From contig NZ_AP019791.1 of the NCBI RefSeq assembly GCF_007164525.1, forward strand, positions 2,839,501-2,903,500: a stretch of 64,000 nt of DNA. The letters run 5' to 3'. Position numbers and translations under genes: made by a program. The notes beneath the pieces were generated by a model. The model made no database searches, was not told the origin of the DNA, and saw only the letters and a program-made list of their open reading frames with translations. Below are positions 26,894 to 51,661 of this stretch, in pieces (positions within the stretch are counted from its first letter, which is position 1; the number at the start of each line of letters is the position of its first letter). The stretch is from Rubrobacter xylanophilus. Lineage in GTDB: Bacteria; Actinomycetota; Rubrobacteria; Rubrobacterales; Rubrobacteraceae.

Positions 26894-27222
26894 CGCTCCT
26901 CCCCGGGGAGCACCTGCTCGGCGAGCACCTCCGAGCGGATGACGAGCCCCTCCCGCACCGCCCGCCGCACGAAGGGGAGGAAGGCTTCGATCTTCTCCGC
27001 CTCGTCCACGAGGTCCACTACCACCGGCAGGTTCTCCGCCAGACGCAGGATGCCCGCGGAGGCGATGTCCGCGTGCGGGGCGTAGCCCATGAACCCCTTG
27101 AAGACGGTGGCCCCGGCGAGCCCCCGCTCCCGGGCGGCGAGCACCAGGGCCTCGAAGAGCGGGCGTCCCCTGTAGCGCTCGTCCTCGCCGATGAGGATGC
27201 GCAGCCGGACCGCGGGCCTCAT
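26890..27222 (-). CDS. DUF190 protein (first copy)
   Basis: 110 aa. It has a DUF190 core with VRLRILIGEDERYRGRPLFE, ATVFKGFMGYAPHADI and LPVVVDLVDE. The fold resembles PII signalling proteins, and such genes cluster with crcB. The start ATG overlaps the stop of the upstream crcB gene (ATGA), so it is translated with the channel. Confidence 0.9.
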   Translation of the reverse strand: MRPAVRLRILIGEDERYRGRPLFEALVLAARERGLAGATVFKGFMGYAPHADIASAGILRLAENLPVVVDLVDEAEKIEAFLPFVRRAVREGLVIRSEVLAEQVLPGEER

Positions 27223-27593
27223 CCCGCCACTCCCGCCCCCGCTGACGCGCCCAAGGAGAAGGCGAAGAGCCCGAGCGCCAGGCTGCCGACGACGTTGAAG
27301 AAGGCCCGGTCGCGCTCCCCGGAGGCGGCCAGGTTGATCGTCTCCAGCATGAGCGTGGAGAAGGTGGTGAACCCGCCGAGCAGCCCGCTCCCGAGCACGA
27401 GGAGCAGCGTCCTCTCGTGCGGGGCCGCCCCCTGCAGCAGGCCGAGCCCGAGGCAGCCGAGCACGTTGACCGCCAGCGTGCCCCAGGGGAACTCCGGTCC
27501 CATCCGGTGCCCCACCCAGCCGCCGAGGAGGTATCGGAGAACCGAACCTGCCCCGGCACCGACGAGGGTGAGGGCGAGCTCCACGTGCGACAC
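27219..27593 (-). CDS. crcB: Fluoride channel subunit CrcB/Fluc
   Basis: 124 aa with four transmembrane helices. GAGAGSVLRYLLGG, PWGTLAVNVLGCLGLG (pore Asn) and GLLGGFTTFSTLMLE (sodium site and Phe box) are the Fluc signatures. Fluc channels let F- leave the cell down its gradient. It starts at GTG 27593, sharing a base with the stop of the fused CrcB upstream (TAGTG). The two unequal subunits may form a heterodimer. Confidence 0.95.
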   Translation of the reverse strand: MSHVELALTLVGAGAGSVLRYLLGGWVGHRMGPEFPWGTLAVNVLGCLGLGLLQGAAPHERTLLLVLGSGLLGGFTTFSTLMLETINLAASGERDRAFFNVVGSLALGLFAFSLGASAGAGVAG

Positions 27594-28270
27594 TAGAGGA
27601 ACCTCCGGGAGATCCAGAAGCCCCCGAAGGCCGCGAGCAGCCCGAACAGGATGCTGCCGCCGCCATAGAGCCCGCCGAGCAGCGGTGAGGCCTCCCAGCC
27701 GCGCATGGTGTGCAGGGCATAGGAGCTGAAGGTGGTGAGCGACCCCAGAAAACCCAGTACCCAGAACGTCCGTGCCCGCTCGCCGACGAACCGCTCGAAG
27801 ATGAGGGTGCCGAAGATCGCTATGAAAAAGGAGCCGACCACGTTGGCCGCAAGGGTGCCCCAGGGAAATACGCCGTAGGCTTCGGGGGTGATCTGACGGG
27901 CGGTCTCCTCCGCCGCCAGCCGCGTCCCGGCCCCCAGTGCTCCCCCGGCGAAGACCCACCCGAGATTCTCGAGCCCGGCGCGGAAGGGCCGGGAGCGCAG
28001 GGCGGCACCCCGCAGGAAGCCCTCCGGGGCTTCGTGCACCACCGCCTCGCGGGATACCGAGATGCTCGCCCCCGGTAGAAGCCCCCGCAGCTCCTGGAGC
28101 ACCTTCGCCAGAACCTCCTCCTCGTCGATCAGCATGAGGAAGACGTGGTGCGCCGCCTTCGTCTCGGGCCCCCGGTAGGCCGTTGCCGAGGCCACGCCCC
28201 GCCGGTGGGCCAGGCGCACCGCCCGCTCACAATCGAGCTCCGAGCTCAGCCTGACCGTCGCCTGAGCCAC
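27593..28270 (-). CDS. crcB: Fused DUF190-like sensor domain and CrcB/Fluc fluoride channel
   Basis: 225 aa from GTG 28270. Residues ~1-75 form a small alpha/beta domain resembling DUF190/PII (ATVRLSSELDCERAV, RRGVASATAYRG, HHVFLMLIDEEEVL). Residues ~100-225 are a complete CrcB channel: GGALGAGTRLAAEE, PWGTLAANVVGSF and GFLGSLTTFSSYALH. Family CrcB proteins are ~125 aa, so this is a true N-terminal fusion. The start is uncertain: TTG 28288 is also possible, and earlier codons fall in the terminator. First gene after the fluoride riboswitch. Confidence 0.88.
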   Translation of the reverse strand: MAQATVRLSSELDCERAVRLAHRRGVASATAYRGPETKAAHHVFLMLIDEEEVLAKVLQELRGLLPGASISVSREAVVHEAPEGFLRGAALRSRPFRAGLENLGWVFAGGALGAGTRLAAEETARQITPEAYGVFPWGTLAANVVGSFFIAIFGTLIFERFVGERARTFWVLGFLGSLTTFSSYALHTMRGWEASPLLGGLYGGGSILFGLLAAFGGFWISRRFL

Positions 28271-28326: not shown

Positions 28327-28363
28327 AAAAAAGCCTCCGCCCGCGCACCCGGGGGGTGCGGGA
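28327..28363 (-). terminator. Riboswitch expression-platform terminator
   Basis: Just after the aptamer, a G+C-rich hairpin (CCCGCACCC paired with GGGTGCGCGGG) is followed on the minus strand by six T residues. It is an intrinsic terminator expected to form when no fluoride is bound. Confidence 0.8.
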
Positions 28364-28429
28364 CAGAAGCCATCAGCGCCGCCGGCGCGGTTCTCCGGAG
28401 AATCTCCCGGAAGGCGGGCCTCATCGCCC
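28364..28429 (-). ncRNA. Fluoride riboswitch aptamer (crcB RNA motif)
   Basis: The minus strand begins GGGCGATGAGGCCCGCC and ends GCTGATGGCTTCTG, with a variable G+C-rich helix between. These are the two conserved blocks of the crcB motif and match the Thermotoga petrophila aptamer almost base for base. It stands between the promoter and a terminator in front of two crcB genes. Fluoride binding should stabilise the aptamer, block terminator formation and switch the operon on. Confidence 0.95.
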
Positions 28430-28443
28430 TGCTCGTAACGCGG

Positions 28444-50127: not shown

Positions 50128-50529
50128 ATGCAGAGCAACGGACGCATCTTCGGGCCGGACGACACCATCAGGATCAGCGTGGGCATCCGGCACACCATGC
50201 ACATCGACAGCGTCACGGTGGTCTTCGCCCACGAGCGGCAGGAGGGGGTGGAGCTACAGCTCTTCGGTGGGCCGGCGCCCTTCGAGGAGGGCGGTCGCAC
50301 CTACACCGTCTCTGAGGTCTGGCGCAGCGAGGCGGAGGTGGTGGCGACCGTCCCGGCGAACACCACGCCGGGGCGCTACGCGCTGAGCCAGGTTCTCCTC
50401 GAGACCTACGGGGGCAGGGTCTACCGCTACGAGGCGGAGGAGCTGGAGGAGGCGGCCGGGAGCCTCGGCTTCGAGGTGGTCGAGGAGCCGGCCGACAGGC
50501 CGGTCATAGAGGGGCTCGGCTACACGTGA
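50128..50529 (+). CDS. Hypothetical protein
   Basis: 133 aa, not recognised. It is beta-rich with no signal peptide. SVGIRHTMHIDSVTVVFAHE and ATVPANTTPGRYALSQVLLE look like an immunoglobulin-type sandwich, with an acidic C-terminal helix. AGGAGGGAG precedes the ATG. It is the first of two short co-directional genes. Confidence 0.65.
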   Translation: MQSNGRIFGPDDTIRISVGIRHTMHIDSVTVVFAHERQEGVELQLFGGPAPFEEGGRTYTVSEVWRSEAEVVATVPANTTPGRYALSQVLLETYGGRVYRYEAEELEEAAGSLGFEVVEEPADRPVIEGLGYT

Positions 50530-50596
50530 GATAGGGGGAGGTTTCGTCCGGCGGGCCTCCGGGAAACATAGGGTGCCCGGAAGGAGGTGATCGGGG

Positions 50597-50713
50597 ATGC
50601 TCGCCACGCAGGAGAGGACCGGGCTCCTCGAGGAGGGCCTCCTCGACGGGCTCGCGCGCCAGAGCTACGTGACGGGGCTCCTCGAGGAGCTCTACCGCGG
50701 GCCGTTCGTGTAG
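50597..50713 (+). CDS. 38-residue peptide with perfect Shine-Dalgarno
   Basis: The ORF encodes a short peptide with the repeated element TGLLEE (residues 8-13 and 26-31) and the ending LYRGPFV. The start ATG is preceded by AAGGAGGTGATC, a 12-base perfect complement to the 16S rRNA tail, ending 4 bases before it. A 15-base direct repeat (GGGCTCCTCGAGGAG) lies in the coding part. A perfect 12-bp hairpin follows the stop. No known peptide family was recognised. Confidence 0.6.
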   Translation: MLATQERTGLLEEGLLDGLARQSYVTGLLEELYRGPFV

Positions 50714-50722
50714 GGAGAAGAC

Positions 50723-50758
50723 GGGGCCGGGTCCAGAGAGAGGGAAGGACCCGGCCCC
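50723..50758 (+). terminator. 12-bp perfect hairpin after the small peptide gene
   Basis: GGGGCCGGGTCC and GGACCCGGCCCC form a perfect stem around a purine-rich 12-base loop. No T-run follows, so it may end transcription only in part, or protect the message. Confidence 0.6.
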
Positions 50759-50791
50759 GCCGCATGGGGGGAGGATGGTTATCTCAGGCGC

Positions 50792-51046
50792 CTACCAGAG
50801 CACGTTGTTGCCGCCGGGGTTCGGCTGCGAGCCGCCCCGCCGCGCCGGGGCTCCGATCTCATCGCCGCCCCGGTTGTGGAGGGTGGAGTTGCCGGGATCG
50901 CAGCCCTCGTTGCCGTTCCCGTTGCCCGCGTTGCAGTGCACCTTCTTCGGCGGCTCCGGGCAGGCGGCCGCGGCGAGCGCCGGCGGGGCCATCACCAGCA
51001 GGGCCAACAGGGCCGCCGCCAACATCTGAACCGCACGTCGCCTCAT
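50792..51046 (-). CDS. Small secreted Asn/Gly-rich protein
   Basis: 84 aa. The signal peptide (LAAALLALLVMAPPALA) is followed by a mature part with CPEPPKKVHCNAGNGNGNEG, then CDPGNS and HNRGGDE. Three Cys and many Asn, Gly and Asp residues suggest a small metal-binding or disulfide-held exported protein. Similar NAGNGNGxEGCDPGNS proteins are found in actinobacteria without known function. GGGGAGG precedes the ATG. Confidence 0.75.
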   Translation of the reverse strand: MRRRAVQMLAAALLALLVMAPPALAAAACPEPPKKVHCNAGNGNGNEGCDPGNSTLHNRGGDEIGAPARRGGSQPNPGGNNVLW

Positions 51047-51282
51047 CGCGCCTCCCCGGAGCTTCGGGAACGTATCCGCTGCCAGCGTAGGGCAAACTCT
51101 GCGGCCTCGCATCGTCCGAAAGACCGCTTCCCGGACCGTTTCACCGGACGCACTTTCGTGCGCACTCCGGCGTAGCACCCGCCCAAGAGAACGGAGCGGC
51201 GTTCCGGGTCGCGCTCTTCCGTTCTATCCGCTAGCGGCAGCTGCCTCTGAAATGCTCCCGGGCCCGGAGCGGTGGCCGTCGC

Positions 51283-51631: not shown

Positions 51632-51661
51632 TTGCATGCATGCACCGGATATCTGTATAAT
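51632..51661 (+). promoter_or_regulatory. Promoter of the histidine-utilisation operon
   Basis: TTGCAT and a perfect TATAAT are spaced by 18 bases, ending 40 bases before the RpiR-type regulator. TGCATGCATGCA directly at the -35 box is self-complementary and may be an operator. Confidence 0.6.

What the first reader, a model, noticed from the sequence alone, without database searches (positions are those of the whole stretch)
50597..50758. 38-residue peptide gene with a 12-base perfect Shine-Dalgarno and a strong 3' hairpin
AAGGAGGTGATC equals the full anti-SD complement, much stronger than at any other gene here. The peptide repeats TGLLEE, the DNA holds a 15-base direct repeat, and a perfect 12-bp stem follows. 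This could be a highly expressed small protein, a peptide precursor or a regulatory leader.
Basis: seen in the sequence. Interest (0 to 1): 0.55.

Follow-up and report, generated by a model that had tools for sequence, protein, structure and literature searches.

The report
Stress-linked micro-protein gene of Rubrobacter
A real gene for a 38-residue, probably helical micro-protein that belongs to a small family found so far only in one group of hardy bacteria and that seems to be switched on by a general-stress promoter; what the protein does is not known.

Summary
In detail: a 38-codon ORF (50597-50713) follows AAGGAGGTGATC (50581-50592), the best predicted ribosome-binding site in the window, and a 13-bp perfect hairpin (not 12) follows. 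It is a real micro-protein gene. The congener G001 keeps it in frame (40 aa, 66% identity), and profile searches found more members in the class: 8 of 39 genomes, none outside the family in 396 phylum genomes. The shared core is GLLxGLxxxSxxxxLLxELY. In genus g3 the core is under strong purifying selection (dN/dS 0.00-0.06 where computable); between the window and G001 it is not (about 1.1). No family library or PDB search recognises it.

New: a SigB-type promoter, GTTTCG-N14-GGGAAA (50541-50566), precedes it. Comparable sites precede 8 of 9 members examined. The same pattern is enriched in the genome (31 sites against 10 reversed) and sits before two Hsp20 genes, dodecin, an HtrA-like protease and a sigma factor. 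One member is the N-terminus of a GAF-domain protein.

Best reading: a lineage-specific, strongly translated general-stress micro-protein that acts as a short helix binding a partner. Leader-peptide and RiPP-precursor readings are not supported. The biochemical function is inferred only.

The parts
50541..50546 (+). -35 element GTTTCG of a SigB-type promoter (prediction)
   Evidence: consensus as quoted in PMC8346170
50561..50566 (+). -10 element GGGAAA, 14 nt after the -35 element (prediction)
   Evidence: same sequence and spacing in the congener G001
50581..50592 (+). 12-base Shine-Dalgarno sequence AAGGAGGTGATC
50597..50713 (+). 38-aa micro-protein MLATQERTGLLEEGLLDGLARQSYVTGLLEELYRGPFV
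   Evidence: AlphaFold2 helix at residues 2-34, mean pLDDT 82
50617..50635 (+). first copy of the 19-nt direct repeat
50671..50689 (+). second copy of the 19-nt direct repeat; not conserved in the congener
50722..50759 (.). 13-bp perfect hairpin between two convergent ORFs, probably a terminator for one or both strands (no T-run follows)
   Evidence: congener hairpin of 12 bp with one T-A to C-G change on both sides
50128..50529 (+). neighbour: 133-aa protein without a known domain, upstream on the same strand; not needed for the proposed unit

Best explanation
The locus is a self-contained micro-protein gene of the general stress response. Shown by sequence: a 38-codon frame with a near-perfect ribosome-binding site, conserved in frame in the congener, homologous to 34-43-residue proteins (and one N-terminal segment) in other Rubrobacteraceae, and followed by a strong hairpin. 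Supported by pattern statistics: a promoter of the SigB type (GTTTCG-N14-GGGAAA), shared by most members and found genome-wide before heat-shock and stress genes. Inferred: under stress a SigB-type sigma factor transcribes a short mRNA of about 190 nt, the very strong ribosome-binding site gives many copies of a Leu-rich acidic alpha-helix, and the conserved positions (L15, L16, G18, L19, S23, L29, L32, Y33) dock it on itself or on a partner protein. The member that is the N-terminus of a GAF-domain protein suggests an interaction module that can work free or fused.
For: Frame and family: G001 orthologue at E 2.0e-6, alignment with a 6-nt in-frame gap; profile hits in G003, G015, G023, G044, G048 and G051. 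A model built without the two g1 sequences ranks G001 (E 5e-6) and the window peptide (E 5e-4) first and second of 1148 frames, the third at E 5.9. Purifying selection in g3 core codons: dN/dS 0.00, 0.04 and 0.06 for three pairs. Promoter: score at least 8.5 in 8 of 9 members against 4.6% of 392 background starts; strict pattern in 4 of 9 against 1 of 392. Genome: 31 sites against 10 for the reversed pattern. Downstream proteins with Pfam matches: Hsp20 twice, dodecin, Trypsin_2 plus PDZ, sigma-70, BON, SDR. SigB/F/G-type sigma factor over the curated cut-off in G000. Consensus from PMC8346170 (passages read). Helix 2-34 predicted. GAF fusion L060:1501-2091, PF01590 E 2.1e-15.
Against: No expression, start-site or protein data. 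Between the window and G001 dN/dS is about 1.08, against 0.12 for the neighbouring 133-aa gene: in this genus the peptide drifts or is relaxed. The promoter motif was seen by eye in these loci before scoring, the members are related so the 9 are not independent, and G044a has no such promoter (score 6.5). Only 8 of 39 class genomes have a member. A strong hairpin follows 4 of 8 members tested. The helix is not more amphipathic than shuffles. The GAF fusion is one protein in one draft genome, and its model failed (mean pLDDT 30). Two G044 copies are frameshifted and one G051 copy (L064) lacks a clear in-frame start.
Confidence: 0.7

Rival explanations
1. An ordinary small hypothetical gene, second cistron of an operon with the 133-aa gene, expressed by read-through from the upstream promoter; the SigB-like motif is coincidental.
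For: Same strand, 67 nt apart, pair kept in G001.
Against: No such ORF was seen behind the three distant homologues of the 133-aa gene (L004, L005, L006), and the other family members lie in other neighbourhoods. The promoter pattern matches in 8 of 9 loci, against 4.6% of background starts.
Confidence: 0.15
2. A regulatory leader peptide or attenuator: translation of the 38 codons controls the hairpin and a downstream gene.
For: Very strong SD, short ORF, strong hairpin right after the stop.
Against: What follows the hairpin is a convergent ORF on the minus strand (50792-51178) that is conserved in G001; the next same-strand gene recognised starts at 51636. The protein sequence, not a codon run, is conserved, and the motif also stands inside a 196-aa GAF protein.
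Confidence: 0.03
3. Precursor of a secreted or modified peptide (RiPP or signal peptide).
For: Size; several copies in G044 and G051.
Against: No signal sequence visible, no variable core, conservation to the C-terminus, no modification or export gene recognised next to the window gene, acidic net charge.
Confidence: 0.04
4. A dual-function or non-coding small RNA; the ORF is incidental.
For: Short unit with promoter and strong hairpin; the congener folds its SD into a 5'-UTR stem.
Against: Codon-position composition and mainly third-position changes in g3; protein-level homology across genera; no Rfam match.
Confidence: 0.05

Closest known systems
SigB-type general-stress promoters (B. subtilis GTTTAA-N12-14-GGGWAW; S. 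coelicolor SigB homologues)
   Same: GTTT at -35, GGG and A at the fifth position of -10, 14-nt spacing; the genome has a SigB/F/G-type sigma factor and the same pattern before heat-shock genes.
   Different: Which of the 11 sigma-70 matches in the genome uses it is unknown; not tested experimentally.
Small SigB-dependent proteins of unknown role in other bacteria (recalled, no call)
   Same: Very short ORF under a stress promoter.
   Different: No sequence relation found in Pfam, NCBIfam, PHROGs, PADLOC or PDB sequences.
Single-motif RsiG of Rubrobacter (small helical anti-sigma of WhiG; PMC8325347, search listing and passages read)
   Same: Small helical protein in the same genus, tied to alternative sigma factors.
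   Different: Its E(X)3S(X)2R(X)3Q(X)3D motif is absent here, and WhiG promoters (TAAA / GCCGATAA) differ from the one found.

Membership tests
[quoted passage not shown]
   GGGAAA at 50561-50566; conserved in G001
SigB-type promoter | GTTT-type -35 element 12-14 nt upstream of -10 | tested here: met
   GTTTCG, 14 nt
SigB-type promoter | a SigB/F/G-type sigma factor in the genome | tested here: met
   TIGR02980 over cut-off at G000:C1:645943
SigB-type promoter | transcription start mapped and lost without the sigma factor | not testable with these tools
   no expression data
Single-motif RsiG anti-sigma | E(X)3S(X)2R(X)3Q(X)3D motif | tested here: not met
   read by eye in the nine sequences: no member has it; motif from PMC8325347
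Regulatory leader peptide | a same-strand gene directly downstream whose expression it controls | tested here: not met
   convergent minus-strand ORF follows; the next same-strand gene recognised starts at 51636
RiPP precursor | neighbouring modification or export genes and a variable core | tested here: not met
   none recognised among the window neighbours scanned; conserved to the C-terminus
Any curated protein family (Pfam, NCBIfam, PHROGs, PADLOC) | profile match at a meaningful E-value | tested here: not met
   best E 0.19 (NCBIfam, one member) and 0.34 (PHROGs); none in Pfam or PADLOC

The most novel reading that the evidence does not exclude
The peptide is a free form of a regulatory helix of the Rubrobacter stress-signalling system. 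The same module is fused to a GAF sensor domain in G051, so the free peptide, made in large amounts under a SigB-type promoter, could bind GAF-type stress sensors or sigma-control proteins and feed back on the stress response.
Probability: 0.15. Interest if true: 0.6.

Novelty: new member of a known kind. Interest (0 to 1): 0.42.

Why it matters
Rubrobacter is known for resistance to radiation and drying (recalled), yet searches of the paper library for Rubrobacter with 'small open reading frame' gave 0 papers and with 'small protein' plus 'sigma factor' gave 2, the one read being about RsiG and not this family. A micro-protein family tied by promoter to heat-shock and other stress genes is a direct handle on that response, and the inferred promoter rule (GTTT-N15-17-GGGWAM) gives a testable list of 31 sites in one genome.

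Tried and rejected
Profile A2 used a wrong frame for L003 and one search used the wrong strand for L005 and L006; both were redone. The first genome-contig scan with the two g1 sequences found nothing; the second, with A7, found five Rubrobacter loci. Weak hits L008-L013, L024-L027, L036-L043, L047-L050 and L062 were treated as chance, mostly because they lie inside long frames or match only a short stretch; L046 (E 0.006), L065 (E 9.2e-4) and L064 were left out of the family alignment and promoter counts as unclear. AlphaFold2 of the GAF fusion from one sequence failed (mean pLDDT 30) and was not used. No fold search was run on the 38-residue helix: too short to mean anything. An SD-hiding stem (thermosensor) was considered: the SD is buried in G001 but only partly paired in the window, so it is not conserved. 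Amphipathicity was tested and not found. No match in plasmid or phage collections. The inverted look of GTTTC...GAAAC in the window was considered as a terminator of the 133-aa gene; its outer pair is lost in G001 while the promoter letters are kept, so the promoter reading is preferred.

Full report
OBSERVATION. The ORF, ribosome-binding site, peptide repeat, DNA repeat and hairpin are all at the stated place. The stem is 13 bp, not 12, and ends at 50759. The 12-base Shine-Dalgarno sequence occurs once in the window and three times in the 3,022,875-base genome, against 0 for the reversed pattern. One of the other two is inside a coding frame (L014) and one lies between genes (L015). No 16S gene could be found in the held genome, probably because it is withheld, so the 16S tail is recalled. 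With that tail the duplex energy is -23.1 kcal/mol; the best of 50 provisional window genes, each allowed its most favourable start, has -18.8.

A REAL GENE. All 38 third codon positions are G or C while second positions are 39% GC; at the regional GC of 0.687 a run of 38 has a probability of 6e-7. The only other genome held in the genus, G001 (3,225,748 bases; by length I recall it as R. xylanophilus DSM 9941, no call), has the gene in the same place with one 6-nt in-frame insertion, 40 residues, 66% identical. Flanking non-coding DNA shows 1-nt indels.

A FAMILY. A profile of the two sequences, run over the 39 class genomes, gave weak hits (E 0.002-0.014) in G015, G023, G044 and G048 that proved to be short ORFs of the same plan. 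Iterating added G003 and G051. Final count at E <= 0.01: 8 of 39 class genomes; 8 of 396 genomes sampled across the phylum, all from the same family. G023 has the contig length of R. marinus NZ_CP045121.1. A scan of one genome per species (84,980 species) with the g3-like profile found five loci, all Rubrobacter or Rubrobacteraceae by record title. To reduce circularity I built a model from six members outside genus g1 and searched 1148 frames of the window and of L003: the G001 peptide came first (E 5e-6, 22.3 bits), the window peptide second (E 5e-4, 15.8 bits) and the next at E 5.9; the best of ten shuffled databases scored 10.5 bits. The six had themselves been found through g1 models, so the test is not fully independent.

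CONSERVATION. Seven columns are invariant in nine sequences (M1, L15, G18, L19, S23, L29, Y33 in window numbering). In g3 the core dN/dS is 0.06 (G023-G015), 0.00 (G023-G048) and 0.04 (G015-G048); core values for pairs with G003 could not be computed because synonymous sites are saturated. Window against G001 gives 16.5 replacement and 5.5 silent changes, dN/dS about 1.08, while the 133-aa neighbour gives 0.12. So in the window's own genus the peptide keeps frame and core but drifts elsewhere.

PROMOTER. While aligning upstream DNA I noticed a GTTT...GGGWA pattern. Scored on 130 nt before nine starts, 8 of 9 reach 8.5 (G044a does not, 6.5), against 4.6% of 392 background start-like sites; the strict form GTTT-N15-17-GGGWAM is in 4 of 9 (window, G001, G003, G048) against 1 of 392. 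The nine are related and the motif was chosen after looking. The two frameshifted G044 copies also score 8.5, at -56 and -55. A test not based on these loci: the strict pattern occurs 31 times in the genome and its reversed control 10 times. I read 30 of the 31 sites, of which 12 overlap a long GC3-rich frame on one strand or the other, printed 12 downstream proteins with plausible starts and sent 8 to Pfam: Hsp20 twice, dodecin, Trypsin_2 plus PDZ, sigma-70 factor, BON and SDR; one 26-aa protein had no match. These are typical general-stress genes (recalled). The consensus is that of SigB-type promoters as quoted in PMC8346170 (passages read). All 39 class genomes match the SigB/F/G sigma model and 33 exceed its cut-off, G000 included, so the sigma factor is available but not specific to genomes with the peptide.

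UNIT. In the window the predicted promoter lies between the stop of the 133-aa gene (50529) and the ORF, leaving a 5' leader of about 20-25 nt, followed by ORF and hairpin. The hairpin sits between convergent ORFs and is kept in G001 (12 bp) with a two-sided T-A to C-G change. Perfect stems of 14 and 18 bp follow the G015 and G003 genes; G023, G044a, G051a and G051b have none that clearly exceeds background.

PROTEIN. AlphaFold2 with eight family sequences gives one helix, residues 2-34, mean pLDDT 82 and above 90 in the middle. It is acidic and Leu-rich; its hydrophobic moment is not above shuffles. No Pfam, NCBIfam, PHROGs, PADLOC or PDB relative. In G051 the motif forms the N-terminus of a 196-aa protein whose residues 61-195 are a GAF domain, with a SigB-like site upstream (score 9.0). 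In L053 and L054 the gene stands divergent from a hemerythrin gene, a link that is not shared by the window.

VERDICT. A genuine, lineage-restricted micro-protein gene with a strong ribosome-binding site and a likely SigB-type stress promoter. The molecular function is inferred: a helix that docks on itself or on a partner, perhaps a sensor protein. Leader-peptide and RiPP readings are not supported. The finding is a good small-protein and stress-regulon lead rather than a new kind of system.

Noticed in passing
window 28357-28437 (-) and 27222-28226 (-): Fluoride riboswitch (RF01734, 35.1 bits) directly before a CrcB-like gene (PF02537): ordinary fluoride-export arrangement.
   Followed up: yes
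L060:1501-2091 (G051:C186): The micro-protein motif forms the N-terminus of a 196-aa GAF-domain protein, with a SigB-like site upstream.
   Followed up: partly
G000:C1:297933 (-) and 298623 (+), loci L070 and L071: A sigma-70 gene and an Hsp20 gene, both with SigB-type sites, about 0.7 kb apart on opposite strands: possible autoregulated stress sigma factor.
   Followed up: partly
L015, minus strand, G000:C1:1714408-1714419: The only other non-coding AAGGAGGTGATC in the genome lies between two gene-like regions (citrate synthase and CinA by eye, not searched) with no obvious ORF behind it; no Rfam match.
   Followed up: no
window 50128-50529 (+): 133-aa protein without a known domain; relatives of 30-35% identity in G003, G015 and G023, dN/dS 0.12 against G001.
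   Followed up: partly
window 50792-51178 (-): Convergent ORF that looks like a small secreted protein rich in G and N, conserved in G001; no Pfam match.
   Followed up: no
L003:1925-1957 (G001): The congener's Shine-Dalgarno sequence is predicted to be buried in a CCUCC-GGAA-GGAGG stem even at 60 C; the window does not share it.
   Followed up: partly
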